A DNA stretch of 64,000 nt, taken from positions 15,629,570-15,693,569 of the forward strand of contig NC_088300.1 of assembly GCF_032854445.1 (NCBI RefSeq). Direction: 5' to 3'. Source of the stretch: Liolophura sinensis (lineage: Eukaryota > Mollusca > Polyplacophora > Chitonida > Chitonidae). The position numbers and the translations under genes were made by a program. Numbering within the stretch: position 1 is the first letter of the stretch; the number at the start of each line of letters is the position of its first letter. Below the pieces are notes generated by a model. That model had not been told where the DNA came from and searched no databases. It saw only the letters and a program-made list of their open reading frames with translations. This document shows positions 18,401 through 61,775 of this stretch, in pieces.

Positions 18401-21400
18401 TACATCAAGTAATGGTCTGCATTGCATAATCTGCGTCCTGAGTTCAACATGTACAAAAACAATCAATGTTTTGGATTTTAATTATGAATTAGAACACACC
18501 AAAAACAGCACATGAGCTCTGTCATTACATACATGCATTCACACCAGACAAACACATGGATAAGTATTTAATTTGTTAATGTGTCAAACATATTTAGCTC
18601 CTAAACCCTAAATTCAAAATGCATGTATATTATCAGATATTCAACTTCCTACTATACAACAATTCCCAACATCAGACTGATCCGCATGCACCTTTACCAT
18701 GTTGCCTTCTGGTTGTAGCGGCCATATCACATACCCATTAGCAAAAAAAAAAACCGTACAATTTATCAATTGTCACATTTTCACCTGCACATTAATAATT
18801 TAACAAACTTATATATTAATTATCATGCAGTTATTGTCTGTAAGGACTTGTCTTTTATCCAAGCCTTCAAGACTTTGTTTAAGTATACTAAACTATGGCA
18901 TTAGTTAAATGCACCAGATATGCATTGTCCCTACCTCATAGGCTAAGCCATTTGCCTGTCAGAAAAATAATGACAAGGGTGAGTGTTACTTTATTACCAT
19001 TCAGCTGTGATGAGTCTTAGCATTCATATGGAACTGATCTGATATCACACTGCATTTTTCTGCTCCTCACTTCCAAAACTGACAATATATGACACCTATC
19101 ACAAATTATAAAGGTAATTGAAGATCCCAGTCCTGTGCTCTGATGATGATTGTGGGGAAAGAAGACAAAATAAAAATTAAAAATTGGTGCATAATTGCGC
19201 AAAATGTCTGTATAATGGCATGCTGTATTCACCTAAAACTTGGCCTATAAAAATGAACTTTCAGAAGCCAATAAAGGCCTTATGATGATACTTTTAATTC
19301 CAAAACTTAAGATTTTCAGATAAGAAATTCATCAAACTTCACAAAAAAAATGTAAGTATAACCATATAAGGCACACAAATATATCAGATTCAAGCAAAAT
19401 GTGTCACTTAAAAAATGCTAAACTTCAGTTGAAATAGAGTGTACATATTAAATAGTTGCACATCAAAAGCATAATTTCCATCAGACTTGGTAAAAATGTT
19501 TCCAATTAAGTCTGGTAAATAAGCTCAAAACTTTTCAAGTTAAGCAATCCCCATAAATTTCTTTTATAAGGTCAATTAAATGGAAAAGTTAATGTAAGAT
19601 GTCAATATAAGGAAAATTTCCTTGATCAATGAAGTTCGCCGACCCTTTACAGAAGGCAGCAAATCTTAAAACTCACAAAACAGCAGTGCATTCTTCCAAC
19701 TTTTATAATAATACCACAGATTTCAGTAACAAAAAATCACAGATTCATAATATTATTGCGTTATTCATGAGTTTCATGATTGGCTTCCCTTGGCAGAAGG
19801 CCAGAGAACCCCATCAGTTCAAAGATAAATGAACTTTTTTGCTGATGACTTACATTGGTTTGACGCAGCAGATGTGCTAATGGTTCGAACTCGCCCAGCG
19901 ATAGGTAGCCATCATCATCACGATCATACTGGCGGAACAGCATAACACCGTCCACCCCAAGCTCATCCATCATGCTAGTCGAAGCCCCAATACTCCGTCT
20001 GAGCAGGAAAAAATGCATCACCCCAACATAACCGGCCAGCATGATTACTGTCGAAACAACAAAGGCAAACACCCCCCAGAACAGCCATCGGGGGATCCGA
20101 CAGGTGCATCTGAAGGAGTCGTCCTCATTGCTGAGCTGTAATGACAATGCCACAGCTGCCTTAGAGCCATACCCCATAGGTTCTAACAAATCATAAGGTG
20201 ATCAATGGTAGAACATAAGCCTTTTAGCCATGATGGCTGATACAATTAAAATGCTGGAATGTAGAATAGGCTCTCTAAGATTTAACCACATTTGGGAGTT
20301 AGGGCCAAGTGACTCATTTACAATCTTACGCTTCCTTTGCACACAATGTATATCTACCATTACCATATATGCAAATCTCATTAGAATAGTTGTCTCAAAG
20401 ACCTGCAATATACATCTTGACTAAAACTATGCAGGAAGAGCCACACTAGCAGTTAGATAAACTACATTTAAGTTTTAAAAGCAGGAATGAGAGAATAGAT
20501 TGTCTGGATTCAATGCACTTACAGTGCATAATAAGATGTATAAAAAGTTTGATTATCATTGGACAGATCATTGCGATATTTTCTTCAATCAGTATTGGAG
20601 CGACTGACATATATTTCATTAATTACCATTGTTAAAAGGACAGAAAGGAATTTTAAGTTCTCAGAATACAGCCTAAATCAGTATGTTTAATGCCCAATCC
20701 CTGAAAGGTCTGAATAAGAAAAGAATGTAAAACCTCAGGGGCTGCATTAAGACCCACACCACACAGATTAGAACATCTGTGCACTGAGCACTCTAATACT
20801 TGCTGATGTGTGTCAAACTTAGGGCTATTTAAGTGGATTCACTAATTTATGCAAGTTCTGCGTGGTAGAACCCACATGTTTACCAGAAGCTTAGGGAATG
20901 ACAAAGTGGCTCACCAATGGAAAATGCTTTGTGTGAGTGAAGTAACCTATTGGCATACACATTTCACTGTGAAAAGACTCCAAAAATAACAGAAAATAAA
21001 TAATTTAAAAGCAAAATTAGTATTTACCCATTTTTTGGTACATGAGCTAGGGCAACCACTCAGAACTTGAATGAACAATGGACAAAGACAACACCAGACT
21101 AAATGTATATATGCCTCCAAAGGTATCCCCTAAGAAGTTTTAAAAGAATAACATTTTGTCTCTGAGATGCTGTACAACAGAAATAGCCCTGTACAAATTT
21201 AACAAAATAGCAGATTTTCAGAGAATCTAAATCACTACCCTGTCAACATTTTTGATCAATCAGGGTGAGCTAAGTCTATGCCTGTGGGCATTTTGGGGAA
21301 TCATGAAGACCAGGTTATGTGTTGCTATTTACATGTTGATTTCCACATGTTTGAAATCATCAGTTTTCCCACGGTCACATATTTTTACTGATCTTTCATT

Positions 21401-23522: not shown

Positions 23523-26500
23523 ATGAGTGTGCGGGGTGTGTGGGTTATTTCACAGGCTGGAGTCAGTGATGGAGGGCGTCTGCTTTTTTCGAGGTTCGAA
23601 TAATAAATGTGTTTCTTATTCAGCTTCAGTTGCTATTAATCAAATTGATTTAATTAATTATGCTACATAATAAAACATATGTATACTTCGTCAAAGGGGT
23701 GGGATAGACACATATAGGCCTATCTGAATGAGCCCAAATTATGAAAGGTCAAATAAACAACGTGAAATGATATACTGGTACTAATATTAGTTTAGTTTTG
23801 CACTCGGCATATCAAAAAAAAAATAATAAAAAACTTAAATAAAATACTTGTTGAAATACATGTATTTTGTGGAATAATTTAAATGCTTGTAAAGTGTTTG
23901 TAAATCTGTATGCTAATTAAGTCTTCAATGTATTACATGGAAGTCAGTTTTCCTTTTCTTAATTTAAGGAACAAGTGCATTTGAAGATGACAGGCTCATG
24001 GTCACATGTTGGAATCCAGCAGTTCAGCTGCAGCTTTAAGTCAGATGGTTTATCAGATACCCACTGTTTCCATCAGGCTAGCTCTGCCCAGATATAATTC
24101 TTCCACTTGTTAACATGACTGCAGCCATGTAAAATACCCCTGCATGTGTAGACACTGTAAGACTGGGTTTCACTTCATTCATTAATGATTAAGCTCTTTA
24201 AATGATAAACAGAAAAATGTAGAAAGTGTGCAGTGGTATTAGCACCAATTTCATCTGTGCTTGTTTCCATCAGCCTGCATGGAAACAAGCAAGTTGTCAG
24301 AGCTAGGGTAAGGAAAATTGTTCCCCCAAAAAAGTAAATAAATGAATGCCTGAATTGTTTATATAAATATATAGTATATAAATATATAGTATGCTTAATG
24401 ATTCTGATGCACTGTAATTAATCTTTTTTTTTATGATTTTTTTTTTCCTTATAGACGTTTTCCTACAGTTGAAAAGCGTTCAAGGATGGTAGATGGCAGT
24501 GATTATGTTCCAGTTCCTAACAATCAAGAGTTTGTCAGTAATCTTTGTACAGAATTAGGCTTGAAAGGAAAGGCTGGGAAGGTACATGTACTGTATAGCC
24601 AGAACTCAGGTTTTATTTGATAGACCTGTGATTTTAATATGAGAAGGTATAATAGTATAGTGAGAACATGAGTTTTATCTCTGGTGTGTGATTTTATCAG
24701 GAATTTACTATAGCCATATATAGATAATTTGGTCTGATATACATGTATATGCAGTCTTATGAGAATTTGTACATCCAGACTCTTAGTTTGCTTCATATTT
24801 TTTTATGTTATAGTTAAGAAAAGAAGTAACAGAACAAATGCTTCTTCAGATAATAAAACCAAATTAAGCATATATGGACATTTTTTTTATTTGACGAACT
24901 TTAATGTGAAATTCAAGATTAAACATGAGTTATAATAATTGTTGATCCAGTTGTTACTTTTGATTTGTTTTCTAGTTTCTTTCAAAGAGAGACAGCTGCC
25001 TGAAAATAGACCAGAAGCCAATCTTTGAAGTGATCACGAGTCATGGAAACTTGTGGCCAGTTTTGGTTGTTGAGCAGGTAAGTAAGGTATCTGCTTAAGC
25101 CATGGTGTTAGGGGGCTTGTAAATTGCTACTATTTATGCATTTACATGAACAGTTAAAATAAAACCAGGACTGAGGTAAATTGACAAGAGGCTATATTTC
25201 ACCGGTTACATGTGACCATTTTTCAGCTATAACATTGTCGTCGCTGCTCTGGTTTTACTCTCTCTGCTGTACATCTTTAATTATATCCAATACTGTTACA
25301 GAAACCTTTCCGTGCAAATCTATTGAAATTTTTTTTTATTATTTTAAAACAGCCCAAATAATTACCTTTCACAACATAGTAATGTTGTCTGTGCATGTAT
25401 TAGAGTTCCATATCAGTGATAAAATTCCTAATTTTTAGTCGCATTATGACTATTAAAATTAGCTAATATGGATTTTTTGCCAGAACTCTTCTGAATAGCC
25501 TCTTTAAGACAGAGCAGCAATAGTTACCTCCTATTTGACAAGTACATGAGAGTTTTCAAAGTTTTCATATATTAAGCTGAAAGTATGAGCTTTGTAATAA
25601 ATAATATGTACTTGTGCATATTCTCAATTATTGAATTTTACATCGTGGCAGTGAGAACTTTCAGGTCATGAACATCCATTCTTACGGTCATTGGATTACT
25701 GGATGAAGGCATTAGAGGTTTTCAGAGGAATCATTTTAACTGGGTGCAGTTTTGTATGAAGTATATGCTATGGAAGGTATTGGTGCATTTGGGAGATTGC
25801 AGGGTGGTTTTGTGCTTGCTTTGAATTAGAGGTGATGGATTAGAGGTTAATGGACAATTAATGCATTAAAATGTTACTTGATCATGGATACATTTTGATT
25901 ATGATTGTATTGTGCTCATTCACCATATGTTGTATGCTGCAGTTTGGTGTCTTATTCTGCTGCATCCCCCTAGTGGAGCAAGGCTGTTCAGGCAGACCTC
26001 CTGCCATACAGATGTAAGTCAGGGAAACTGTCAGTTTGCAACACGCTAAAAGTTGGCCATTTGTCGTCATTATATTTCAATATTTTAAATGAATATTTTC
26101 ATTTAAACTCCCTGTATACACTTTTTTTCTTGTAATTAATAGAAACATTTTCCATCGTACACTCTGAATATTGTAAAGTCACACTTACAAAATGGTTAGA
26201 CATTTTCTTCAATTTCATTATCCTTATTAGTCACAAAAATACATGCCTATCTATACTAGGTAGATGATACCAAATGTTTATTCTCATGAAGATAAGAAAG
26301 TCAGCAGATAAGTTTTCTTTTCAGTCCAGGGTTATCAGCTGGATTTACCCTCCTCTTGGGCATGGCAGACTGCTTGGGACCTGTGTCAAAGTTAGATGAG
26401 GTATGAAGTACATATCTCCTTATTTATTTGTTTGTTTTTCTGACTGGGTTTAATGCAGTTGTCAAAAATTGTTCACTAAAGTTATACAATGGATACCAAT

Positions 26501-29500
26501 TTTTCTTGGTGACTGAAACCTCCAGCATTTGGCAAGTATTATATTTCTTTTTTTTTTCAAGTACATGCACCACATTTTGCTTTGTGCTGTTTGATTATCC
26601 AGATTTTAGGGGGGTTTAAGAATTTTTTGTGGAATTATTTTTTGTCTTAAGTTTTGGCATCAAAAGTGTATATGTTCTGAAAGTGCATTTTTACAGTCCA
26701 AACTTTAGGTGAAAGGCATTAACTGTCAATCTTTTACTATATGTCACACACAGATTTTCCACCTGTAGAGTTGCATCAAAGTGAATGCAATATTGGTTAG
26801 GATTTTTGGTTTTGATGAACTTAAAACCTCCTGTTTTCTGGTGTCTTAATGCCATTTAGAATGGCTACAAGGAGGATAATGGGATGACATCTTGAACACA
26901 TTGATGTAAGTATTGTTTATGGTGTTTAGTTTGGGCCTGTCTGTTCCAATTTTTTTTGTTTTTTTTTGAATATTGCAGAAGTCACCCAAATTTGAGGAAC
27001 TGTCATTATTCCTGAGTCAGGCCGCCTCCTTTGGACGTGTCCGCGATGTGAGGGTGTCTTCTGTGACAGCTAAGCTACTAAGCAGGGGGACAACTCTGTC
27101 AAAGCAAACAGTGGTAAGGTTTTAGACCCTTAAATATTTATTGTACTGTATATGCATTTGCTTTGATTTCCTGCATTTTGTGTCACAGGCATTTTGTGTC
27201 ACAGGTTATTACATCTAGAGAAGATAAAAAGTAAAGGAATGATACAGCCTATTTACTGTGATTAGTTTAAAGAATATATTTCGGAATGTTGATGCAAATT
27301 TAAATTTAAGAGGGTGAACATCTGTCTACATGAATAAAGGAATTAATTCAATAGAAGCGTCAATCAAGAACTCACAACTGATCAATCATAAGGAGTATTG
27401 TTGCAAATATGTCAACCGAATGTACCACACATTGGTTACAAATTTCTATCTTTTTGTGACATCACAATTGCTTTCACCGGGAATGGAATGAAAAGTAAAG
27501 TTGTCATGAGAAGGGATAGCAAGACATCGGTTTCGATGGGGATTTCGAGTTCAAATTCTATTATTGCCGAAAGTAAAGAACATCCTACAGTATCATGTGA
27601 CCCCTCAGAAATGTTAGACAACTGTTTTTGATTCCTTTTTCCTATAACATGGGTGCCTGAAAAAGTTTTCCGAAAAGTTATTTAGAGTAAACAAATAATA
27701 GAGGGAATCAGTGAGGACATTTGTGAACTTTAGAAGTTCCTGAGGCAAGAAAGTTTCAGTAGTCTATCCAGGAAGTGGCAAGACAGGTGACCAGTAAATT
27801 AATGTTGACTAATGCTGCCCAACATTTTCAACAGGTCACATCATACAGAAGGAAGAAACAAGGAAATGCAGTACTGGATATTCCCCAAAATGACATAGTG
27901 CACCTGCAAGTTAACAAAGGGTGATTTCACAAACAAACACTGCACATGTTTTAATAATTCATAATATTTCCACTTGTCGAAACTTTGCCAGCAGCCAGCT
28001 TGGAAGCCTGTCTTACACAAGGGAAAGAACCAGGTGTACTTCAATATCAGAGAGCAGATCCGGGCAGTTCAGTACGACAACGCCAGCATCGCTGACCAGT
28101 GGAACCTATACGGGACCGTGACATGCCGGGCAGAACTGGAGGGGGTGTTGCCAGAGATTACATTAAATGTGACCCACATGTCAGACGCGCCGGCCCTGCC
28201 TCTGGACTACCTGCTGACTCACCCTTGTGTACAGAGTGCTGAGGCTCAAGGGCTTGACCCAGGTCAGGACACTTTGTATCTGCTTACATGAAGTACATGA
28301 ATAGGAAGACTCGAGGTAATTTGTTGGCATGTATGGAGAAAAATGCTTCAGTCTGAAGAGTGGTTATTGAACAAGTGATAGCATTTTGAGGAACTGTTCC
28401 TGTTGAAGATAAATCAAGATATTTTTGTGCTTCTGCGTGGAATATTTCAAACAAGTAGTTGTCACTGATAAATAAAAATGAATGAAGTGGTCACCGTAAA
28501 TCATCTGTAATTTGAGAGAATTTACCGACTAATCACCCTGCCGTATTAAGTTGATTAAAAAATCATGTGGATTTTTATTTGATTAACATTATTCAGACGA
28601 AACGTAATTTTTTACCAACTAGTGTGCACTTCAGTTTGTGCAGTAAGGCAGTTATTTTGTGAAAAATTTCATGAAATTATAGGGGATATACTGTATGTTT
28701 TAAGTTTTTGTTGTCTTCACCACAGATGATTTGAACAGAGGAGGCCGAGCGATGCCCCGCAGACTGAGATTCACGCCCCCTGTGGACACATGTACAGTTT
28801 GTCGTTATGCAGTCTCCAGCCTAATGGAGCTGCCGATCAAGGGATTGTATCAGATGAGGGTGAATACAGCAGTGCACGTCATCTTTAACTCTGACTCTAA
28901 ACAGGATCTCTCGCTTCAGCACATCGCTAACCAAACTATTAAGCCACATGAGAACAGTCAGGTTGATAGGATCTGATTATTTGAGTGAAAGACTTTATAA
29001 CAAGTTGGTTATAACCAGTATAAAAACATGTCATTCTCTGCTGCAACTTTGCTCTGTGTGTGAATTACCTGCATGCTTTAAGGGCACAGCCATACACAAA
29101 AACCAGGGCACAATGAAACGGGACTGTATTTAGTAGAACTGATAGGCATTGCAAATGGTTCAGTAGTAACTTAATAAAGTCTAGCTGTTACTTGCTGTCC
29201 AGAAGTGTAAAGATCATGGCATAATTTCTGTGGCAGATGGAAGACAGGGTTTCCAATTTGGAGGTGAAACTTCAACTTAATGAACGAGTGAAGAATGCAT
29301 TTGACTACTGCGAACTTCAGCTGCCTTTCTTTAACAGGTAAACTGTTCAAAATTGTGTTGTTTTTTTCATTCAGGTATATTGTACAATGTGCTTATGTAA
29401 GCTGTAATGTGGTAAAGAGTACCCATAAGATTTTATTTGTGTGTTCTTTTTTTGCATGCTAGAATGTATGCTATATCCAGAATGTGTTCTATATCCAGAA

Positions 29501-32418
29501 TGTATGCTATATCCAGAATGTGTTCTATATCCAGAATGTGTTCTATATCCAGAATGTATGCTACATCCAGAATGTGTTCTATATCCAGAATGTGTTCTAT
29601 ATCCAGAATGTGTTCTATATCCAGAATGTGTTCTATATCCAGAGTGTGTAATGCCTAAAGATGATAATAGTGTTACTGTTTGGTTTTTTTTATGATCACA
29701 ATTCCAAAATGCCTCTGAAACAAGGTGCTTTCATTTCCTTGGTCTGATATATAAAGTTAATTTGTTTGATTTATGATGATTTATTTCTCAGAGGTGTGAT
29801 TCATTTTCTTGGTCTGATATATAAAGTTAATTTGTTTGATTTATGGTGATTTATTTCTCAGAGGTGTGATTCATTTCCTTGGTCTGATATATAAAGTTAA
29901 TTTGTTTGATTTATGGTGATTTATTTCTCAGAGGTGTGATTCATTTCCTTGGTCTGATATATAAAGTTAATTTGTTTGAATTATGGTGATTTATTTCTCA
30001 GAGGTGTGATTCATTTCCTTGGTCTGATATATAAAGTTAATTTGTTTGATTTATGGTGATTTTTTTCTCAGAGGTGTGATTCATTTTCTTGGTCTGATAT
30101 ATAAAGTTAATTTGTTTGATTTATGGTGATTTATTTCTCAGAGGTGTGATTCATTTTCTTGGTCTGATATATAAAGTTAATTTGTTTGATTTATGGTGAT
30201 TTATTTCTCAGAGGTGTGATTCATTTTCTTGGTCTGATATATAAAGTTAATTTGTTTGATTTATGATGATTTATTTCTCAGAGGTGTGATTCATTTCCTT
30301 GGTCTGATATATAAAGTTAATTTGTTTGATTTTTTTCTCAGAGGTGTGATTCAGACTTATGACTGTTCTGCATCACAGGGAACAGTCTTGCTTTCACCGG
30401 ACAAGCGGATTGTTGTGTGGAATATAGGTATGAACTGACTACCCTAATTCCTCTAACAGGAACACCTGGTCTGCTCTTTTTAGCCAATATACATGTAATT
30501 GTAGCGGGAATATTTATTTTCTTTTTCTTCAGATAGTTAGTCAGTCTAATAAACAACATATTCACTTTTCAAAAACTGGGAGAGAAATGTTACTCTTTGC
30601 TTTCAGCACCGGTAATATCCTAAAACATAAAAGAAGTAGGGTATATAGGTCCAAAAGGCTATAAAGAATTATTTTATGGTGATACAAGTTGAAATACTAT
30701 ATTTCTGTAATTTTGTTCCATTGATTGTAATTTTATTTGATGTGATGAAAAGAATGATTGCTTCCAGACTATAGCCGAAATATATTTTTGTACCCTGGAA
30801 ATTTCTTGATAGCCACGGGCTAACTGGTTGCGGATACGCCCTTCACTTTAATTGAATTTCTTCGTTTGAAGCTAGCATACTGAACAGCCGTGAGCTGTAC
30901 GTGGAATGTAAATCAGCCTTCTTTATTCACTAAATAATGGCCGTAAGGTCGTGTCAGAATCAGTGTGAAGTGATAGGCCTCCCTGCAATCTCTTACCTCT
31001 AGCTGCGACAAAATCCCAAGCGGATTTGTCTTGTGACATTTATGTGGAACTCAGATCGTTTTCTCTTCACACAACCTCAGGTTCCCGGTTTCCTCCGAAG
31101 ACATTAGAAGTGACCTTGACCTGTACCCTACGCTTCAGTGACCCGGGTCAGAGGTCAGCGGCCATGTTTGAGGACCCGTTCTGTGTGGGCCAGAATGCTT
31201 ATGCTCAGGTAAGATCTTCATAAAACATTGACTGATCCTTGTGCAGTATTTAATCAAAGTGTTTACTTGGATTATCATTGATATGATACTTGGAATATCA
31301 TTGACAGGCAATATTAAATCTGAATTTGTGTTAACAGAGAAAATTAGTTTAAGCCTCAGTAGTACCTGCTACTGAGAGCTATATTTTCTACGCAGATCAG
31401 GATAATATCTGCAGTTTTATTGCGGTCAGTTTTTTATGCTTGTTATTTATACTCTCAGCATACAGTCTTACATGAGGTACCTTGCTTGCTGTGCCACATT
31501 GAGTATATTTTTGTGTTATCAACACTTACACTAAGTAAGGAGAGTGTGTGAAACTCACAGATTTTATAAGGGTCTCTTTCAAGATGTGCTCAGTATTTTC
31601 CAAATCAAACTTTTAAATTATATGTTTGGCAACATACATACCTTTCATCCCCTTTTAATAATGGACCTCTGGATAGTTGGTTTAATGAGGTTGCATGTTT
31701 AGCTTTCTGTGCCAGTCTTTAGGGTAAGCTTACATGGTCATGGAGAAGAAGAATCGTAAGACCCTTCTCAAACTCGTGTGGGATGCGTAACCCTTATTCT
31801 TATCATCTAAAGTGTAAGAATATCATTTTCAGTCGAGCTTTAAATTTTTTTCTGTTATACATATATTTTATCTGATAGGTATGTGTACTTAAGATTTTTA
31901 TATTCTCTCTTTTAACAGCTTTATTTCAAAATACCAGACTTCAGTCATTCTGGATGTTATGTGGACCCCAAATCAGTACAGGTGTCACCAAGCACAAAGT
32001 TCAAGTTAACCACAGGTGAATTCTGACAAGAACAATGTAAACAAGAAATGCAATCAAGTTAGCTGTTGTGACATAACGTATTTGAGATTAATCATTTGTG
32101 TAGTTTAAGCTTTTTTTTTCATTTTAACTGATAACAGTTTGTTGTATTTGGAAAAAACACCTTATACATACATTAACACTCCTGACATAGCACAGTTTTC
32201 ATTTATTTCACCTTTAAGTGTATATTGGTGTAATATATAATATATCTCTGTTAAATATATTAACTCTTTCTTGTTTTTGTGTGCTGTTTGCTAATTTCTG
32301 TTTGTGTGTTTGTTTCTCAGAAAGAGAGTATTTGTCAGCAGAATACAAGATATGGAATTCTCATGGTGATTCACTGATGGTTTTCCCTCCACCAACCTTC
32401 CCTCTGGATGCATCTTGA
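23523..32418 (+). CDS. AP5M1: AP5M1: AP-5 complex subunit mu-1 (MUDENG)
   Basis: Complete in 13 exons: 23523-23593, 24455-24581, 24976-25077, 25943-26013, 26325-26400, 26979-27113, 27992-28262, 28726-28859, 29237-29337, 30342-30427, 31081-31208, 31919-32015 and 32321-32418. The exons join in phase to 498 residues; the human protein has 490. The N-terminal half has RFPTVEKRSRM and DYVPVP as in vertebrates. The mu-homology domain runs from about residue 195 (QPAWKPVLHKGK) to the end, with YGTVTCRAELEG, PFFNRGVI, GCYVDPKSVQV and EYKIWNS. AP5M1 is the cargo-binding subunit of AP-5, which works with SPG11/SPG15 on late endosomes in retrieval to the Golgi. The start is the ATG of MSVRGVWVIS, aligning with the human N terminus. 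The acceptor of exon 10 is the last copy of a 70-bp tandem repeat. Confidence 0.96.
29460..29648 (+). repeat. 18-bp minisatellite, about 10 copies, AP5M1 intron 9
   Basis: The unit is 'ctatatccagaatgtgtt', with 'ccag' recurring every 18 bp from 29477 to 29639. Because 18 is a multiple of 3, the array is open in several frames, but this is no gene. It starts about 120 bp after the exon 9 donor. Confidence 0.95.
29731..30353 (+). repeat. 70-bp minisatellite carrying copies of the AP5M1 exon-10 acceptor
   Basis: 'tttctcagaggtgtgattca' recurs with 'ctca' at 29787, 29857, 29927, 29997, 30067, 30137, 30207 and 30277 (exactly 70 bp apart), then at 30337. The last copy is 10 bp shorter and is the true acceptor: only it continues into 'gacttatgactg' of exon 10. 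Each earlier unit holds the tract 'tttatttctcag' plus the first 12 nt of exon 10 (AGGTGTGATTCA), so the tandem duplication spanned the intron/exon border. Use of a decoy would add residues and then reach an in-frame TGA within one unit. The copies are nearly identical, so the array is young or homogenised. Confidence 0.95.
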
Positions 32419-33560: not shown

Positions 33561-36500
33561 ATGGCAGGACAAAAAGCAAGATTGGTTATCTGTTTATTTC
33601 GCAACGATCTTCGTTTTCATGACAACCAGGTATTGCAATTTTTCTGCTGTTGGTGTTAAAATAGTGTTCAATGACAGGCCTACTTACATTGCCATATCAA
33701 CTATCATCATAATCAAAATGATCATGTGTACTGTCCGCCTATGGCTGACGAACAGCAGTAGATCGTTTGACTTGTTGAACTAAATGATCATGGCGTACCA
33801 CTGCAGCCTAGTGTGAGATTGCTCCGATGTTGGGTGTGGCAAAATTCAGCCCCAAACCAACGTCAAGCGTGCTCCATTTAAACGTGTCGATGCTGTTAGT
33901 AGGCCTCCAGCCGTTCGCTTTGGGCATCACCAAGGAATTTTGGAACCGTGCGGCCAAGGAAATAACAAATGGACGTTGTGCTTGTGATACAACAGCAGAG
34001 GAAAAGATAAGAAAAACAAGTGTCTGCAAACTCCAGGCTGTGGAGATGTATTTGATGGGTAATTTTTTTTCTCAAACACCATGACAAGCTGCCACAGCAA
34101 CTGCATCAGGTCTTTGAATGGAGTGCACTCTGACGTTGGTTTGGGGCCATCCTTGGCCAACCAAAACTTTTGCCAAACCTAACTGAACGTTTGAGCAATC
34201 TCGGGCTAGTACTGACCATGCAGACTTCAGCTTCACAAATGGCGTGACTGGTGTCATGTCTCACTGATTGTTGTAGCAAAATCAACAGGTTTATGTCTGT
34301 ATTTCCACTTGACACAAAGAATTAAACTTGAGTGGTTACTGTGCTGGTGCAGAACGATGGCTCGATCAGGAGCCTCTCACAATATAGGTGTTGTGAGTTC
34401 AGATCCAACCCGTGCCGGCTCCCTGGCTGGTTGTACGTGATAAAGAGGTGTTTTGCATGCAATGACGCTGTCAAGAAAGATTCACCCAGATGATTACTCA
34501 GTCTAGATGAACTCTGACACCAGTGTTTTGATGAATGTCAGACATATAAAATAGTCCATCCAGATGGAGTGGTTATCTAGGTAAATCTTTCTTGACAGCT
34601 TCATTTTATGTATAGTATCTCTTTGTTAGATCCCATCTAGACTACCTTAGTGATTATATGCATATTTGCCTGTCCTAACATCCATTCTACCTTATACGGG
34701 ACTGTTTCCCGCAGGCATTAGATTAGGAGTCACTTTTGAAAGTTAGCGTTTTACAGAGATATTTCCCCATAAAAGGTAATGTGGTACCATGTGGAAATCC
34801 AACAAAGGCAGGTACCTTTTTGGGTGAAAAAGATTATGTGCATAAATTATCTCTGCATTGAAGTAGAGGTAAATACACTGTACCTTCAAGTTCCATTGTT
34901 CAGCTACTCTTACCTCACAACTTAGAGTGTCTCTGAAGTGGATTCTTGTAATTAATGCATCTAATGTTCAAATTATGATGCTTAATGCATCTAGTAGCAA
35001 TGTTAAAATCATACAGATGTTGGTTACACCTGATCGGGTAGCTTTCACTGCAGTATAGTGAATGAAAACATCACTTGAAGTCAAACAAAATAGTAGCTAG
35101 CTTGTTTGGGTGGTTGTATCCAGATATTCAGTATTGCAAGTTTCAGGATTAAAGAGTGTAGTTAGACATGTGAAGGAATGTCCAGTGGTGTTGACTTTCT
35201 CGTAATCCCAAGGACGTTAGATGGTTTGAATTACATTCGGACATAATTTGTTTGACAAGGTGTAACAATTTCTTACCAGTATTCTTTGCCTGTATAAACT
35301 GTCTAGCACACAGAAGTGATAAGAACATGCATAAACATTTGAACAGTTGATTTCATATGTATTATGTCCATTTTCAGGGTGGTCATTTGCCTTCTTTTAT
35401 GTGTAAAAAATCATCTTGATGAATGAATCAATGTACATGTGTGTGGTTGTATGGTTGTATAGTTGTGTGGTTGTGTATGTACAGTGCGTAAAATACTAAA
35501 TGCATGTTTATAGAAGATGATTTACCGGGGTCTACATGTTCAAATGTGTATTGAAAATTAAACCCTCTTTTAATCATAGTTTTGTTTTACACTAGTGAGA
35601 CTTTTATTTTGGGATTAAGTTATTACCTGCTTAACTTCTAAGACACTTTCGAGCTGATGGACCCAGTATTGTTAATGAAATCTTATTGAATCAACATAAA
35701 TAAAATCATAAAATAAACAAATCAGACATTAAATTCCATGATAGCCATTAAAATCCACTTATAGTGGAGTCTGTAACTTTATTTAACTTAAATACTGTAA
35801 TTTATCAACCATTTCCCATGTTTGCAAGGTGTTTATTCAAGGATATTGGGAGGGAATTATTCTTTGTTCTTTGACTGTTCTCCTATGATGTTTTAGGTAG
35901 TCTTGCATGAATTTCATATGAAATGATTTGTATTCAATTTGGCACACATTATGAGTCCATCATGCGGATAAACAATGTACAGAACATATGGAAATTTTCA
36001 ACCACCCATTGCTCAAAACCTGATGCACATTCTATCTTGTACAGTCCACAGTGAATGCTGTTTTTTTCATTGGTAGATGTTACACTGGGCACACAGGAAT
36101 GCTGACTTCGTCTTGCCTCTGTACTGCTTCGACCCTCGTCACCTGAAGGACACATGGCACTATCACTTTCCCAAGACAGGTCCTCATAGACTCCGGTTCT
36201 TGTTAGACACTGTCAGAGATCTGAGGCAAACTTTACAACAGCATGGCAGGTGAGCTTTCTTACACACACAAGACAAAAAAAACCCATTAAATAACTTAGT
36301 ATAACTTTTACCAGTGTAAATTATGACTCTAAAGTTAACTCCAGTTTCCTCACAATTGACAATGTCAGACAGTGTCACACACCCCTTATTTGTTGTACTC
36401 TATGGCATGGTTAATGTACATTCCATGATGTTAGCCCAAAGTTAGACATGTGACCGGCTGTTCAAACTGTGGGGCACCATGCCCACTTGGGATGATCTAT

Positions 36501-39500
36501 TCTTTGTGTTCCATCAATGGCATACTTGCTCTTTCTTTGCAGTTTTGTACATAAAGCATTATTGTAATATCACAAAGAAGATTAATGTTTATGTGTCAAG
36601 GATATCCTGAATTATTTAAGCCCTGTATGGGCCAATTTCCCTTTCAGGTTATGAAAACTTCCAGGAAGGTTTTGAATGGCACTTCGTCTTAGAAACAGTT
36701 GTTCGTCAGTGTAGGAAGAGTCGTAGGTGATCACTCTTTACAGTCTGGTATAAAAGAAGCAGAGTACCTCACAGTTGTTTTTTTTTATTTTTATTTTTAT
36801 TTTTTTTTTTTTTAATCTGAACACAGGCCGCTCATTTCATCTAATGTTGAAGGAGAAGGAAGAGTTCTTCTCCCTTTGTTTTAAGTTGCATTTACATTTT
36901 TGTAGTGGGCTTATTGTGAGAGAAGGAGAGCCAGAGAAGTTAATCCCAGACCTAATAAAGAGACTGAGCGCAGGGCATCATGTACATACAGTAGCCTTAC
37001 AGAAAGAGGTATGTCTGCCTTTCTCTGTTCAGGCTGATCTATGTACCATCTGAAAGATAACCTGTTATCAGCTCACCAGCTCACCATCACAGCAGCCATC
37101 TCATGCAAACAACCAGCTCATCCATCACATCCAGGATCACCAACAACCTCCTCACAAGCAACCAGCTTATTCATGACAAACAACCTCACCCATCATACAC
37201 AACCAGGTCATTCCTCAAAAAACAACCAGCTCACCCATCACAAACAACCAGCTCACCCACAACAAACAACCAACTCACCCATCACAAACAACAAAGTCAC
37301 ACATCACACCCATGATCACAAACAGCCTCCTCACCCGCCACAAACAACCAGCTCACCAATCACAAACAACCATCTCGCCCATTACATCCATGATGACAGG
37401 TAACCTCCTCACCCATCACTCAACCAGCTCATCCATCACAAGTAACCAGCTGATTCATCACAAACAACCAGCTAATCTATGATCACAACCAGCTTATCCA
37501 TCACAAACAACCAGCTTATTCATCACAAACAAGCAACTCACCCATCACAAACAACCAGCTCATTCATCACAAACAACCAGCTCAAGCATCACAAACAACC
37601 CGCTTACACATCAGGCCCATGATCACAAACAACTGGCTCACCCATCACAAACAACCAGCTTATTTATCACAAACAAGCAACTTACCCATCACAAACAACC
37701 AGCTCACCCATCACAAACAACCAGCTCATTCATCACAAACAACCAGCTCAAGCATCACAAACAACCCGCTTACACATCACACCCATGATCACAAACAACT
37801 GGCTCACCCATCACAAACAACCAGCTCATTCATCACAAACAGCCAACTTACCCATCACAAACAACCAGCTCATTCATCACAAACAACCAGCTCACCCATC
37901 ACAAACCACCCGCTTACACATCACACCCATGATCACAAACAACTGGCTCACCCATCACAAACGACCAGCTCACTCATCACAAACAACCAGCTCACCCATC
38001 ACAAATGACCAGCTTACTCATCACAAACAGCCAGCTCACCCACAACAAACAATCAGCTCACAAATAGCAAACAACCCACTTTCTCACGGAAGACGCATGG
38101 TTCACTTTTCACACAACAGCTGTTTTATCCAGCATACACTGACCATTCGCAACCATCTTATGCCCCATACATAATCAGCTCACCATGTGTACCCCCTCAG
38201 TGTGCATTGAGCTCACCCACCATACACAAAACTCTTACTTAATATGTATAATCCATGTTTTTCAAGGTCACAAAGGAAGAACTAGATGTTGAAACAGCCT
38301 TAATATCAGCCTGTACACAACATGGTGTGGAGATAAAACTGTTTTGGGGAATGACGCTGTACCACAGAGATGATCTGCCCTTTGACCCTAAACAGTGAGT
38401 TTAAATCTGCCTGCTGCGACTGTCAGTCCCTTGACCAGTGAGGCCACTTGTTCAAATCCAGCTCTCCCCTTACAGTATTACAACAGCTTGTATTGTGATT
38501 GATACTGTGTGGGTTCCATTTGAGCTATTATGAACATATATGAGGTTTATTTGTTAGCTCTTTCGAAAAGACTTTTTTTTTAAGTTTCATGTTTAGTTGG
38601 TCTCTGTAAGCCGGAGATTATGGTTTAATGTTCTCTATGATTTTTATCTTACAATTATCCGTGTAAAAGTGGAAATAACAAAGCAGTTTAATTGCATGAG
38701 GGAGGAGTAGCTGTTGTTACAAACATACATATACAAGAACCTGCCTGTGAAACGGTTCTTGCATTAGATGTACATAACTATCATGGCATCCAGTTGTGAA
38801 GAAATAATGTTGCCATGGTACCAATATTGAAAACTCAAGTGAAGATTCTGACAAATACCTGTGTGATCTGACTTGAAGATGAGAACCTCCATCTGATTGG
38901 TGGGAGTAAATTGCTGACTCCTAGGTTTTATAATAGGCTTTCCTGTAGTTAATCATATATTCTTCTAATTTACTAATACCGGCCCCGATAGCAGAGTTGG
39001 TAGAGCGTCCGCTTTGGGAGCGGTAGATCCAGGGTCAATCATGAACTGCAACAATCCTGAAATCTGTCCTGCAACAAGGAGGCACATTACATGCACTCTA
39101 ATGATTCCCTCATCGTCATATGACTGAAAAATTGTTAAGCACGACGTTAAACCCCTATCACTCAGTCACTCACTCTAATTTACTAATGATGGGGGAGGAG
39201 TTAAAGCTGGATCTTTGCAATAACCAGCTGATATTGGGCGCCAAGTACATTCATCTTACTCTTACACAAAATTTATTGGAGATTACTTGTACTTGCCTTC
39301 CACCACAGAGCTATAAACAGATCTCTGTATACATGTTGCACAGCACATTGACCCAGGATCTCCAAGGCCCTACGCATGTAGCATGCTCACGGAGCTTGAG
39401 ATTTGACAGTTATCTGGTGGTTTACCATGGTACATGACCTAAAGTTTCGCATGTGATTTACTGTCATTTACTTTGATACAGTCTGAGTTGGCGGTATAAT

Positions 39501-42500
39501 GACAGAAAAGAACGATTAACCCTCTGCCTATGGCATTAAACTTCAATAAATTGATCATTTACTTAATACAGAACTCCAAACGTGTACACCGAGTTCAGGA
39601 AGAGTGTGGAGAACAGGTGCTCAGTGCGCCCCCTGGTGGACATGCCAGCCCAGTTAAGGCCCCTCCCTGGTGGAGTAGAAGGAGGAGACATACCTGATTA
39701 CTCTGCTCAAGGTGAGATTTCTCCACAGCTGAATCTTTCGAATATACTGGTGACGAATCTTAATTCTAAATAGCTGAATTATTGAACTATATGTAAAGAA
39801 GCTGATACTATTAGTGACATGATCACTCAGTGATAAGATACTCTAATATATGACGTCAGTAATACTCATAATGGGTGAGGCGTCACTGAGTAACCATGTA
39901 ACGAATTTATCCTGCAAAGACCCATGAATTCAGTGCAGAACACCGATGTATAGGTGTATTGCTTCGGCGATGTGACCATTGTATTCACAACCCAACAAAG
40001 GGAGATAACCTACTCTGCAGACACATGTGACGTCATCTGCAGGTGAGAATATATTTGTACCCCACGTCACCATTGTTGTCCAGTGAATAGCAGAGTATTT
40101 TGTCTGATGGGGAATAAAAGAGCTTACTCAGTCACAAATTCTATACCATACACTGACACATATGTACACGTAGTAAGCAAGGAATAAGTGGAGGCAAAGA
40201 ATACTGAGGATTGCATACCTGTACATGTAGTAAGCAAAGAATCAGTGGAGGCAAAGAATACTGAAGATTGCATACCTGTACATGTAGTAAGCAAGGAATC
40301 AGTGGAGGCAAAGAATATTGAGGATTGCATACATGTACATGTAGTAAGCAAGGAATCAGTGGAGGCAAAGAATACTGAGGATTGCATACCTGTACATGTA
40401 GTAAGCAAGGAATCAGTGGAGGTAAAGAATAATGACAAATACATACACGTTCAGGTAGTTTCCATAGAAGTTGAAATACAGGATGAATATATGTGTACAT
40501 GTACCATATAACTTGTCAGTCCAGTTATCATATAGACGTGAAATGAACACATTTGCTATTTTGCTATACATGCACATGTGGGTATAGATGAGTTGAAAAA
40601 TTTGATGGGGGGGCTTCCTTGGCCGAGAGAGCATGCCAACACGGCGTGATGACCCAGGAGTCTCCAACCAGTGCAGTTGCTGTGAGTTCAAGCTTCCTCT
40701 CTGGCCATCTACCAGCAACCTGTGGATGGTTGTGGGTTTCCCCCAGGCTCTGCCCGGTTTCCTGCCACCATAATGCTGGCCACCAGCGTATAAGTGAAAT
40801 ATTCTTGAGTATCAAATAAATAAATAAAAATTTGATGAATGTACATAGATATCAACAAATGAGCAGAAATTTTAAAGATACTTTGCCTTTAACGTGTAGT
40901 AGAACTGAGTTAATTGTTAGCTGATAACAGATAGCAGTGTACAAGCAGTTTGAATACTGTTTTGGTGGTAATAGCCCTGAAAGTGCCTGCCAGTATGCAA
41001 ATGCATCACAGCTTAAACATTTTCACATGTGCCAAAATGATAAGCAGTGAACCAGTATTGTGTTTTATTTGGCCAGTATCCCTGTCAGAACCTGACCCCA
41101 GGTCTGCCTTCCCTTTCCGCGGTGGGGAGACGGCTGCCCTGGAGAGGTTACAGTATTACCTGTGGGGGTCAGACAAAGTGGCTAGTTACAAGGAGACCCG
41201 GAACGGTATGGTGGGACCGGACTACTCCACCAAGTTCTCACCATGGTATGTGCTAGTTTTATGACCTGTCTTAAGTCACACAGAAGTGTGAATATAGTAA
41301 CACACAGTTACATATAGTTTACTTTATAGAGATGACCGAATGTTGGCTGAGACAAGGATGTCAAAGAGATATGTTAATAAAATTTGGCATTACTCTAACC
41401 TTTTAACCAGTCAGTATGGGTCAGTTCTGTATCAAGCTAAGCCGTCATGCCCTACCTGGGTTCGTTGACCCATAAACCTTACAGTCATTGGCTCGTGTGT
41501 GTGACTGAGTATAGCGTAAAATACCAACCAAATAAATAAATAAATAATCATCTTGGAGAAATGAAATACTCTTTAGTATGGCATTAACACCTCAATGAAA
41601 AAAAAAAACAAACAAGTAAATGGATTACACTGATGTGACTGTATAGTGTGTCATTATGTTGTACATTTGACTTGATGGGAAAACTCTTTCCCGCTTGTAA
41701 CAAAATGATCCAAAACCCTGAACATTGGTCCTTTCCTGTATTGTCTCACAATTATCAGTGCATGTGTCCTTATAAAACACATATGACGTTTACAAGCAGT
41801 GCAAAGTCACAGAAGAAAACAATGTGATGTACTGAAGGGCCTTTTGCCTAGCTCATCCAAGAGTGTTCCATTGTATATTTATGCTATAAGCATATTAACT
41901 TACCAACAGAATACCTCAAGGTAAAACAAATCTCGTCATAGACCATGTTGTGTCTAACATGTACTTGTGTGGTACGTCATGGTCAATCTGCACACCTTGG
42001 AAGTATTACCTGTAAGGTATGTCATGGTCAGTTAGCACACCTTAAAGTATTACCTGTAAGGTATGTCATGGTCAATCAACACACCTTGAAGTATCGCCTG
42101 TAAGGTATGTCATGGTCAGTTTGCACACCTTGAAGTATTAGCTGTAAGGTATGTCATGGTCAATCAGCACACCTTGAAGTATGACCTGTAGGGTATGTCA
42201 TGGTCTGTTAGCACACCTTGAAGTATTACCTGTAAGGTATGTCATGGTCAGTTTGCACACCTTGAAGTATTACCTGTAAGGTATGTCATGGTAAGTTAGC
42301 ACACCTTGAAGTGTTACCTGTAAGGTAGGTCATGGTCAATTTGCACACCTTGAAGTGTTACCTGTAAGGTAGGTCATGGTCAATTTGCACACCTTGAAGT
42401 GTTACCTGTAAGGTATGTCATGGTCAATTTGTACACCTTGAAGTATTACCTGTAAGGTAGGTCATGGTCAATTTGCACACCTTGAAGTGTTACCTGTAAG

Positions 42501-45500
42501 GTATGTCATGGTCAATTTGCACACCTTGAAGTGTTACCTGTAAGGTATGTCATGGTCAATTTGCACACCTTGAAGTATTACCTGTAAGGTATGTCATGGT
42601 CAATTTGCACACCTTGAAGTGTTACCTGTAAGGTATATCATGGTCAATTTGCACACCTTGAAGTGTTACCTGTAAGGTATGTCATGGTCAATTTGCACAC
42701 CTTGAAGTGTTACCTGTAAGGTATGTCATGGTCAGTTTGCACACCTTGAAGTATTACCTGTAAGGTATATCATGGTCAATTTGCACACCTTGAAGTGTTA
42801 CCTGTAAGGTATGTCATGGTCAATTTGCACACCTTGAAGTGTTACCTGTAAGGTATATCATGGTCAATTTGCACACCTTGAAGTGTTACCTGTAAGGTAT
42901 GTCATGGTCAATTTGCACACCTTGAAGTGTTACCTGTAAGGTATGTCATGGTCAATTTGCACACCTTGAAGTATTACCTGTAAGGTATGTCTGGGTTATA
43001 TTCTGGTTCAATATGTTGTGTCTTACCTGCAGGGTATATGACAGTTACGAAGGATTGTAACTGTCGTTTCTTGTTGTCACAGGTTGGCTTTAGGGAGTCT
43101 TTCACCACGGCAGATTTACTGGGAAATGAAACGTTATGAGGAACAGCGCACAGCCAATCAGTCCACATACTGGGTGATTTTTGAGTTGTTATGGAGGGAT
43201 TACTTCAAATTTGTGGCCATAAAGTTTGGAGACCGGTTGTTCTATAAAAGTGGTAAGCAGATGCAAAAAGGATTATGTAATACTGTTGTGATAAAAATGA
43301 AATTGGCATAAAAGATACTGAGGAGAGAGGATACCAGCATTTTTGTATTGAATATTAATGGCAGAAAGTATGGGTGGTTTTGGAAACTTAATAAAAGAGA
43401 TGGTACAGGTGTTTTGCGGTGTTAATGGCAGATGATACCAGTATTTTCACTATGTTAATGATAGTGAGGGCACATGTATTTTTAGGAGGCCTTTGTGGCA
43501 AAGGGGGTTAGCACTCCAATGCAGCGCAATGACCCAGAAGCCTCTCACCAATGAGTTCAAATCCAGCTCATGTTGGCTTCCTCTTTGGCTGTATGTCAGA
43601 AGGTCCTTCAGCAACCTGCAGATGGTCGTGGGTTTCCCCCCGGTCTCCTCCTATCATCATGCTGGCATAAGTGAAATATTCGGAGTAAAACACCAATCAA
43701 ATAAATAAAATAAAGTATTTTTACAGTGTTAATGATGGAGAGGGTAAGAGTGATTTTGCAGCCTTGATGATAGAGTGAGCACACATTGTTTTGCAGTGTA
43801 AATGATAGAGAGGGTATGAGTGTTCTTTTGCTGTGTTAATGATAGAAAGGGTACCAATGTTTTTGCAGTGTTAATGATAAGAGACAGTACCAGAATTTTG
43901 CAGTGCTAATGACAGAGAGTATCAGTATTTTTGCAGTGTTAATTATAGAGAGGATACTGGTGTTTTTGCAATGCTGATGATAGAGAGATTACCAGTATTT
44001 TAGCAGTGTTGATAGAGTTTATGTCATATAAGTGAAACATTTGGCAAAAAACACCATCTAATTAGTAAATCAAGTATTTTTACGGTGTTAATGGTAGAGG
44101 GGGTACCGGTATTCTTGCAGTGTTTACAATAGAGAGGGTGCGAGTGTTTTGCAGTGTTAATGATAGAGTGGGCACACATTGTTTTTGCAGTGTTGATGAT
44201 AGAGAGGGTACTAGTGTTTTTGCAGTGCTGACGATAGAGATTGCCAGTTTTTTTGCAGCATTAATGATAGAGTGTACTGGTAATTAATTAATGATAGAGT
44301 GTACTAGTAATAATATAAAGCACATTATGCTTTATATTATTGATTGAATTTGTCATGTTCGATACTTTTGTGCTAAAGATCTGTGTTTTTCCAACAGGTC
44401 TTCTTGGGAAACATGTCCCCTGGAGAGTTGATATGAATTTGTTTAACGCATGGAAAGGTAGGTGAATGAAAATGGCAGAAAAATACATGTGGAAAAGGTC
44501 TGGTAATTTGACTTCCATTTTTTTCCACCAGAACATGCAAATATTGTGAAAAAATCAGGAGACACTGATATGTGTTTTTGGTGAGTTTGTTTAAGCCATG
44601 AATGTGAAGGTCATCAACTACTATGAACTCCTTCCCAGGACTGTTTATCAAACCAAATCTTTGACATGAAGACTAATATTAAAAAGAACAGATGTAACCT
44701 GAATTGTATCATGTTACCTGATATGTGGTCAGCTCTTTCACCTGTGTTTTGTTTGATTGCAGATGGCAGGACAGGTGTGCCATATGTGGATGCTAACATG
44801 AGAGAGCTGAAGGTCACAGGGTTCATGTCTAACAGAGGCAGACAGGTACAGCTCACAACTCACCTGAGAAAGGTTGACTATACCTGCACTTACTCATAAT
44901 TTTACCTTTACATTGACGAGTTTAGATGGAATTTTTGCACCTGATTATCTCCCCAAACTAGACACACCTTGACTTTTTAGGCGGGTTATCATAAATTCAC
45001 AAAAATTGTATCTTTGTCAAAAAACTGTAGATCCTTTCAAGTTTGACTTGCTTGATTCTGATTGATTCATCCACATTATAGGGTCATTTATGAATTTTTA
45101 GTGAAATTTAATTAATTTCTTATCCTCAAGACTTAAATGTTGGCACGAGGAGAATGATTTTATGTGATTCTGAAAGTACATTTCATACATGCTAAGGCTT
45201 AGAGGAAATGCAGTATATAGCTTTGTAAAGATCTTGACACCTCACTCAGTGAGATATATATATGTACATCCAGGTAAATAAATATTCTCACAGGTGGCAT
45301 TGCATTTATTTCAGAACGTTGCCAGCTACTTGACCAAAGATCTGAAGTTAGATTGGAGATTAGGTGCTGAGTGGTTTGAATCACTCCTGGTATGTTACAC
45401 ACTGACATTGTTGCATTGTAAGAATGCCGCAAATTGAGCTTGGAACAGTGAAAAATTCCTGACTTTCATGTTACAAGACAATCAAATCAAAAATTAACAG

Positions 45501-56291: not shown

Positions 56292-57130
56292 TGTTTATGT
56301 GTTCAGGGAGATGCTTATCGCACGGATGGTGATGCAATCTGAAACATATGATATCATAATTGATACTAATTGAATTTGATTACATGAAATTGTTGGTTAG
56401 TAGCTGTGATTTTCTGATATTATTAGCTCATACAATGTTTGTACAATAGTTTTGTTTTCAGTTTCACTCTGTGATCCGGGAAATAAAGTAATGTGAAACA
56501 TATATATGTACGTTCACATGCGTGTTCCATTCTTCTGACAAAATCAGGGCTTAAAAGCTTACGTTAAAATGTCCTATATGCCCTATCGTCTTCATGCGTC
56601 ATAACGTAAATCATGATCCGGGCACTGTACTTTACAATCTATCACTAAAATTTATTTATTTAGCACTGGTGCTTACCTGCCAGCAAATATTACACTGTTA
56701 TCATTCGCCATTGGGGTATGCGATACAAGTAAGGTAAGGTGAGTCATAAAAAATTCATTCGGCAAAACTGATTGACTGATTGATTGATTTATTGTTTAAA
56801 GAAGTCCTTCGGGCGTTGTCAGTCACTTATTGGCACAAGGTGCCCGAAAACAATGAGAGGAGGGGAGCTTGTCTAATCGAAGGACTCTTAATTGTTTATT
56901 GAGAACTACGGTTACATTGACATTGACGAGGTTTTTTTGTACAAATGTACAAATGTACAGTGTCTATAAGGCTTAGCCAGTACAGTATATCTATATAATA
57001 CCATTCTCCATAATTTGAAGAAATTTTGTTTATATCTTGGGGGCAGCTGGTGGTGTAATGGAAGGTGTGATTGGGCGACAAGCCCACACACGTGGGTAGG
57101 TATATAAAAACATACACACATAAATCCCCG
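56292..57130. other. Upstream flank of the ZU5-death gene
   Basis: No gene. The promoter or further 5' non-coding exons should lie here. At about 56770-56900 the minus strand reads as a repeat-like segment ending in (aatc)n-type bases ('aataaatcaatcaatcaatc'), which may be the 3' end of an old LINE. No TATA box was chosen. Confidence 0.35.
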
Positions 57131-61185: not shown

Positions 61186-61775
61186 GCATGGTCTGTATCC
61201 TGACGCCTACACCACAATATGGCCAGTATCCTGATGCCTAAACCACATTATGGCCTCTATCCTCATGTCAACACCACATTATGGCCTGTATCCTGATGCC
61301 TAAACCACATTATGGCCTCTATCCTCATGTCAACACCACATTATGGCGTGTATCCTCATGCCTACACCACATTATGGCCTCTATCCTGATGCCTACACCA
61401 CATTATGGCCTCTATCCTGATGCCTACACCACATTATGGCCTCTATCCTGATGCCTACACCACATTCACCACACTACATTATGTCCTGTATCCATATTTT
61501 GTCCTGTATCCCGATTCCTAGACTACATTATGTCCTCTATCCTGATGCCTACACCACATTTTGGCCTGTATCCTGATCCCTACATCACATTATGTCCTGT
61601 ATCCTGATGCCTACGCCACATTCTGCCCTGTATCCTGATGCCTACACCCCATTATGTCTAGTATCCTGATGTCTACATCACATACTGTCCTGTATCTTGA
61701 GGCCTACACCACATTAGGTCTTGTATCCTGATGCCTACACCACATTATATCTTGTATCCTGATGTCTCCTGCAGG
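61186..61775 (+). repeat. 31-bp minisatellite
   Basis: The unit 'ctatcctgatgcctacacca' plus 'cattatggcct' is repeated about 19 times with drift. The clearest 31-bp period is at 61381, 61412 and 61443. Variants exchange 'ctgtatcc' and 'ctctatcc', and there are small insertions near 61460-61500. Confidence 0.92.

What the first reader, a model, noticed from the sequence alone, without database searches (positions are those of the whole stretch)
29731..30353. Tandem array of duplicated 3' splice sites in front of AP5M1 exon 10
A 70-bp unit containing the pyrimidine tract, the AG and the first 12 nt of exon 10 is repeated with eight decoy acceptors before the true one. The decoys keep 'tttatttctcag' and the exon start, so the spliceosome meets nine near-identical acceptors in 550 bp. 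Only the last copy leads into coding sequence; any other gives an in-frame TGA within about 55 nt. The last unit differs by loss of 10 bp, which makes its pyrimidine run longer and unbroken. Repeat copy number could therefore tune AP5M1 output by feeding transcripts into nonsense-mediated decay, or the shortened last unit could be a compensating change.
Basis: partly seen in the sequence, partly recalled or inferred. Interest (0 to 1): 0.75.

Follow-up and report, generated by a model that had tools for sequence, protein, structure and literature searches.

The report
Tandemly copied intron-exon boundary in AP5M1
In a chiton (a marine mollusc), the end of one intron and the first 12 bases of the next exon of the AP5M1 gene stand in nine copies in a row; this looks like a kind of repeat already described in amphioxus that splicing appears to tolerate, and a regulatory role has not been shown.

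Summary
The array is real: nine copies (eight of 70 bp, the last of 60 bp) at 29730-30349, each carrying the end of intron 9 and the start of exon 10 of AP5M1. The gene model matches an annotated chiton protein, Liolophura sinensis, at 100% over 474 residues, on a contig as long as scaffold_2 of a PacBio HiFi assembly, so misassembly is unlikely. That protein joins at the last acceptor. The decoy nearest the real acceptor (30281) gives no stop but adds 20 in-frame residues. The 10-nt pyrimidine run is not special to the last copy; copy 5 has it without the 10-bp loss. The last acceptor is still the best of the nine in a small local matrix. Such repeats, 'mirages', are known in several amphioxus genes, where globin RT-PCR and Adh3 data suggested normal splicing (PMC3087553, PMC3902484, passages). 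Best reading: a recent minisatellite born by tandem duplication at an exon edge and mostly ignored by splicing. Tuning by copy number has no evidence here but is not excluded. What seems new is the host, a mollusc.

The parts
29730..30289 (+). Eight full 70-bp units (starts 29730, 29800, 29870, 29940, 30010, 30080, 30150, 30220), each with a decoy 3' splice site followed by AGGTGTGA
   Evidence: TRF; units printed; variants
30290..30349 (+). Ninth, 60-bp unit (10 bp shorter plus one A-to-T difference from the consensus) holding the real acceptor; followed in exon 10 by TTCA, the bases with which each unit begins
30340..30341 (+). AG of the real 3' splice site of intron 9; exon 10 starts at 30342
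   Evidence: P0006 joins here
30280..30281 (+). AG of decoy acceptor 8: in frame, stop-free, would add 20 residues to AP5M1
30070..30071 (+). AG of decoy acceptor 5: highest-scoring decoy, same last 14 intronic bases as the real acceptor
29237..29337 (+). AP5M1 exon 9 (donor CAG|GTAAAC)
30342..30427 (+). AP5M1 exon 10 (86 nt; its first 12 nt are in the array)
23523..32418 (+). AP5M1 coding region, 13 exons
   Evidence: 100% identity to P0006 over the 474 residues of exons 2-13
29461..29649 (+). Second minisatellite in the same intron: 18-bp unit, 10.5 copies, not overlapping an exon

Best explanation
This is a minisatellite of the 'mirage' kind: a tandem duplication that happened to span the intron 9/exon 10 boundary of AP5M1 and then grew to nine copies by slippage or unequal exchange. 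Shown: the anatomy, the gene, the reading frames, and that the annotated protein uses the last acceptor. Inferred: the array began at short matching stretches (AGGTG, two or three bases, TTCA lies just upstream of the array and at the start of exon 10). Inferred: splicing takes the last acceptor because it has the best pyrimidine tract and directly borders the short 86-nt exon, while decoys would make exons of 146-636 nt. Inferred: occasional use of decoys 1-7 is removed by nonsense-mediated decay, so the array is tolerated rather than used.
For: Unit boundaries are intron end plus 12 exon bases. Full units nearly identical, mean divergence 2.1%, which suggests recent growth or homogenisation. 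AGGTG.{2,3}TTCA at 29723 just before the array and at 30342 in the exon (pattern chosen after seeing the sequence). P0006 joins exon 9 to 30342; its 90% cluster holds one sequence and its name carries no isoform label. The last acceptor beats 16 of 17 other acceptors (those scored leave-one-out) and all eight decoys. TRF rows merged by hand give 13 arrays of period 10 or more covering 7% of the window, so tandem arrays are ordinary here. The same arrangement is described in amphioxus globin, Adh, troponin C and PGBD5 genes, with globin RT-PCR and Adh3 data suggesting no interference with splicing (passages of PMC3087553 and PMC3902484).
Against: The decoys are not weak: they beat 10 of 17 (decoy 5: 13 of 17) real acceptors of this gene and cry-DASH, and keep the same branch-site-like motifs. 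Intron 9 carries 11 strong competing AGs, 9 of them in the array (the 8 decoys and a second AG of unit 5), against 10 in the other 11 introns together. An unused AG at 29375 scores as high as the real acceptor (11.3), so the matrix alone does not explain the choice. PMC3087553 itself says the repeats could be used as cryptic sites. No RNA evidence was seen; it is not known here whether P0006 rests on RNA reads at this junction. The matrix was trained on only 17 sites.
Confidence: 0.78

Rival explanations
1. Copy-number rheostat: decoys 1-7 draw off part of the transcripts into nonsense-mediated decay, so the number of copies sets AP5M1 output.
For: Decoys 1-7 give stops 161-578 nt before the exon 10/11 junction and score like typical real acceptors in a small matrix.
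Against: The annotated protein shows the last junction only; published analogues report apparently normal mRNA; no copy-number variation could be examined.
Confidence: 0.1
2. Alternative isoform: the nearest decoy (30281) is used in frame and adds 20 residues after Arg363, made possible by the shortened last unit.
For: The only one of eight decoys that is stop-free and in frame.
Against: Arg363 and Gly364 are conserved in at least 90% of 32 aligned sequences, and 0 of the 31 relatives has an insertion there. A search with the insert region gave 7 candidates, none with E up to 0.001 (weak). 31% of single deletions would do the same.
Confidence: 0.06
3. Assembly artefact: the array is over-counted or does not exist.
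For: Tandem arrays are prone to it; PMC3087553 notes that one amphioxus mirage was aberrantly assembled in the draft genome.
Against: The array (620 bp) is far shorter than the mean HiFi read of 8,347 bp, 14x coverage, reported for the assembly whose scaffold_2 has the length of P0006's contig. Units carry differing variants in mixed order.
Confidence: 0.04
4. [quoted passage not shown]
For: Every unit has AGGT directly after the acceptor AG; PMC4974935 reports a potato gene where a duplicated intron-exon boundary became a new intron, and PMC3087553 proposes mirages as a source of introns (passages).
Against: Using the first AG and then GTGTGA adds 2 nt each time and shifts the frame (follows from the sequence); nothing seen here shows such splicing.
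Confidence: 0.02

Closest known systems
Amphioxus 'mirages' (Adh3, globins BflGb6 and BflGb9, troponin C, PGBD5)
   Same: Minisatellite-like tandem copies of an intron-exon boundary carrying splice signals; [quoted passage not shown]
   Different: Host is a chiton and the gene AP5M1; nine copies of a 70-bp unit (BflGb6 150-160 bp, Adh3 10-72 bp); expression and polymorphism untested here. Canestro 2002, where the name comes from, is not held and is known to me only through these papers.
Human IFI6 (6-16) minisatellite with multiple splice donor sites (Turri 1995; seen as one sentence in PMC4526556 and as a reference title there and in PMC2572611)
   Same: A minisatellite at a splice junction that repeats the splice site.
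   Different: Donor, not acceptor; there, downstream repeat units are said to be used, giving three mRNA species.
Intron gain by tandem duplication (potato RdRp gene, PMC4974935, passages)
   Same: The duplicate spans an intron's 3' side and the next exon's 5' side.
   Different: There one duplication gave a new spliced intron; here no new intron is seen in the annotated protein.

Membership tests
Mirage-type minisatellite | Tandem repeat whose unit spans an exon-intron boundary | tested here: met
   Unit = end of intron 9 plus 12 nt of exon 10
Mirage-type minisatellite | Repeats contain splice signals | tested here: met
   All eight extra units have AG with a pyrimidine tract and score within the range of the 17 real acceptors
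Mirage-type minisatellite | Copies homogenised, edge units differ | tested here: inconclusive
   Eight units differ at 0-3 of 70 positions per pair (96-100% alike); the last unit differs most, the first does not stand out
Mirage-type minisatellite | Length differs between haplotypes or somatically | not testable with these tools
   No second allele or reads at hand; the genome search did not complete
Mirage-type minisatellite | Normal mRNA despite the array | not testable with these tools
   Only the annotated protein P0006 was seen, which joins at the last acceptor
Regulated unproductive splicing (NMD switch) | Decoy use yields a premature stop upstream of later junctions | tested here: inconclusive
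   True for 7 of 8 decoys, not for decoy 8
Regulated unproductive splicing (NMD switch) | Decoy transcripts exist and rise when decay is blocked | not testable with these tools
   No RNA data here
AP5M1 gene | Adaptor medium-subunit domain and best match to AP-5 mu | tested here: met
   PF00928 E 5.6e-23; PDB 8yab AP-5 mu-1 E 1.3e-44; P0006 100%

The most novel reading that the evidence does not exclude
The array is an unstable splicing dial: each copy adds a decoy that sends some transcripts to decay, while the shortened last unit turns the nearest decoy into an in-frame exon extension that adds 20 residues at a conserved site, so that array length varies both the amount and the form of AP5M1 between individuals or tissues.
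Probability: 0.07. Interest if true: 0.7.

Novelty: new member of a known kind. Interest (0 to 1): 0.33.

Why it matters
The mirages I found in print are in amphioxus; one in a mollusc suggests that exon-edge minisatellites are not a cephalochordate oddity. Nine near-identical acceptors in 550 bp, with the productive one last, is a natural test of how the spliceosome chooses among similar sites (first transcribed, strongest, or nearest the exon). The genome paper lists public RNA reads from five tissues, so the question can be answered soon.

Tried and rejected
Amphioxus as host: suggested by the mirage papers, rejected when the full-length model matched a chiton protein at 100% and the two amphioxus entries listed (P0032, P0043) at 48% and 46%.

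Selection for the 10-bp loss: not supported; 238 of 770 single deletions give the same in-frame, stop-free result.

Is the meeting of array and exon edge surprising? Random placement inside AP5M1: a stretch of 29730-30353's length overlaps exons by 1-30 nt in 4.4% of trials and crosses exactly one boundary in 20%; the 612-bp array would cross at least one boundary in 84%; for the four arrays in the gene 1.42 crossings are expected and 1 is seen. So crossing is ordinary and only the small exonic overlap is mildly unusual, in a test made after the fact. One search put the end of exon 1 at 23594; one search gives 23593.

Other arrays as mirages: on the + strand, 35-, 44-, 57- and 22-bp arrays hold no AG at the decoys' level (7.4). 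The count for the 18-bp array also says none, but it began one base late: the AG at that array's first base (29461-29462) scores 9.8. The other seven of the 13 arrays were not scored. By eye, none of the arrays overlaps an exon of AP5M1 (apart from this one) or an exon I could place for cry-DASH; that model is partial, and only its first two exons have a database match besides a Pfam match at 46838-47329. Several arrays carry donor-like AG|GTATG strings by eye; not pursued.

Rows and sets dropped: TRF's 29 rows were merged by hand to 13 arrays; 271-295 (period 4), 35440-35476 (period 8) and 36778-36813 (periods 1 and 12) were left out. Alignment A1 used 32 of 282 hits, picked by hand from the 120 listed. 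AGs between 29700 and 30345 were left out of the background. One search had four cry-DASH acceptors misplaced; its matrix scores are dropped in favour, while its pyrimidine counts for the nine array acceptors stand. Of the 17 training acceptors, 11 are AP5M1's (matching P0006) and 6 cry-DASH's, 4 of these placed by eye alone. The insert search is weak.

The genome-wide search did not complete.

Full report
What is there. TRF finds a period-70 array at 29730-30332, 8.6 copies, 98% matches. In register there are eight 70-bp units and a ninth of 60 bp ending at 30349. Each unit runs TTCATTTCC...TTTCTCAG|AGGTGTGA; the bar is the intron-exon junction, and the next four bases, TTCA, are also the next four of exon 10, so 12 exon bases are copied. 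The eight full units differ from each other at 0-3 of 70 positions (mean 1.5). An unrelated 18-bp minisatellite lies in the same intron at 29461-29649.

The gene and the organism. Thirteen coding exons from 23523 to 32418 make up AP5M1. The C-terminal part matches Pfam PF00928 at 5.6e-23 and the AP-5 mu-1 chain of PDB 8yab at 1.3e-44. The model of exons 2-13 (474 residues) is contained letter for letter in P0006, AP-5 complex subunit mu-1-like of Liolophura sinensis, a chiton. P0006 lies on a contig of 82,493,220 bases, the length of scaffold_2 in the Liolophura assembly, first named L. japonica and later corrected to L. sinensis (PMC11068029, passages; PMC12441733, whole text). That assembly rests on HiFi reads of mean 8,347 bp at 14x, much longer than the array. 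That the window comes from it is inferred from these matches.

What each acceptor would do. Acceptors 1-7 give a stop codon ending 55-58 nt after the junction and 161-578 nt before the exon 10/11 junction, with three introns downstream; such mRNAs are normally decay targets (established knowledge, not tested). Acceptor 8 (30281) is 60 nt upstream of the real one, in frame and free of stops: the product is AP5M1 with 20 extra residues after Arg363. Arg363 and Gly364 are conserved in at least 90% of 32 aligned proteins, and none of the 31 relatives has an insertion between them, so such a protein would probably be impaired (inference). A search with the insert region found no matching protein (7 candidates, none with E up to 0.001); this is weak evidence.

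Strength of the sites. A 22-position matrix from 17 acceptors (11 of AP5M1; 6 of cry-DASH, 4 of those placed by eye alone) gives the real acceptor 11.3, better than 16 of the 17 scored leave-one-out; seven decoys 7.4-7.5, better than 10 of 17; decoy 5, 9.5, better than 13 of 17. Among 3,705 AGs outside the array, 2.4% score as high as the common decoy and 0.4% as high as the real one. Branch-site-like motifs (CTGAT, TTAAT, TTGAT) are kept in the four acceptors looked at, three decoys and the real one, 10 nt nearer the AG in the last unit. Intron 9 holds 11 strong competing AGs, 9 of them in the array (8 decoys and a second AG of unit 5); the other two are at 29375 (11.3, as high as the real site) and 29463 (9.8). 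The other 11 introns hold 10 in all. The matrix is small and does not by itself predict the site used. The longest pyrimidine run is 10 in the real acceptor and in decoy 5, and 6 in the others; pyrimidines in -20..-3 are 15, 13 and 12 of 18.

How it arose. AGGTG followed by two or three bases and TTCA occurs at 29723, just before the first unit, at the start of exon 10, at the matching place of each copy, and at one other place on the + strand (28032); the pattern was chosen after seeing the sequence. Exchange or slippage between the first two would copy the stretch seen (inference). Further growth by slippage or unequal exchange is the usual course for minisatellites (established knowledge). 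Thirteen arrays of period 10 or more cover 7% of the window. Four lie inside AP5M1; random placement predicts 1.42 of them crossing an exon boundary, and 1 does, though an exonic overlap as small as this one came up in only 4.4% of trials.

What is known. Minisatellite-like tandem copies of intron-exon boundaries are called mirages in amphioxus. [quoted passage not shown] the authors say that Adh3 data and their globin RT-PCR suggest undisturbed splicing, and also that the repeats could serve as cryptic sites (PMC3087553, passages). PGBD5 and, by citation, troponin C in amphioxus are similar (PMC3902484, passages). A minisatellite giving several donor sites is cited for human IFI6 (PMC4526556, passages). 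A duplicated intron-exon boundary became a new intron in a potato gene (PMC4974935, passages). My searches for such arrays in molluscs or chitons (listings only, 4 of 4 and 12 of 207 papers shown) showed none described in title or abstract; a cone-snail gene-structure paper listed (PMC3862624) was not opened, and subscription journals are mostly not in the library.

Judgement. The array has the anatomy of a mirage, in a new host phylum as far as I could search. The likeliest state is tolerance: the annotated product uses the last acceptor, the best of the nine, next to a short exon. The rheostat idea is not excluded, because the decoys are good sites by sequence and RNA was out of reach here. 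The five public tissue RNA sets would settle it.

Noticed in passing
29461-29649: A second minisatellite (18-bp unit, 10.5 copies) in the same AP5M1 intron; the AG at its first base scores 9.8 as an acceptor.
   Followed up: partly
39572-47242: A cryptochrome-DASH gene on the + strand (PDB match for two exons; Pfam photolyase domain at 46838-47329; other exons and the end by eye), with 57-bp, 44-bp and 35-bp tandem arrays between its exons.
   Followed up: partly
41971-42991: A 44-bp unit in 23 copies whose unit junction reads AAGGTATGTC, like a 5' splice donor; no exon was seen at its edge by eye.
   Followed up: partly
55203-56294 (- strand): Open frame with a ZU5 domain match (E 5.8e-06).
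   Followed up: no
19764-20201 (- strand): Open frame with weak EF-hand matches, below Pfam's cut-offs (best E 0.00014).
   Followed up: no
61188-61764: A 31-bp unit in 18.6 copies, not linked to a gene.
   Followed up: no
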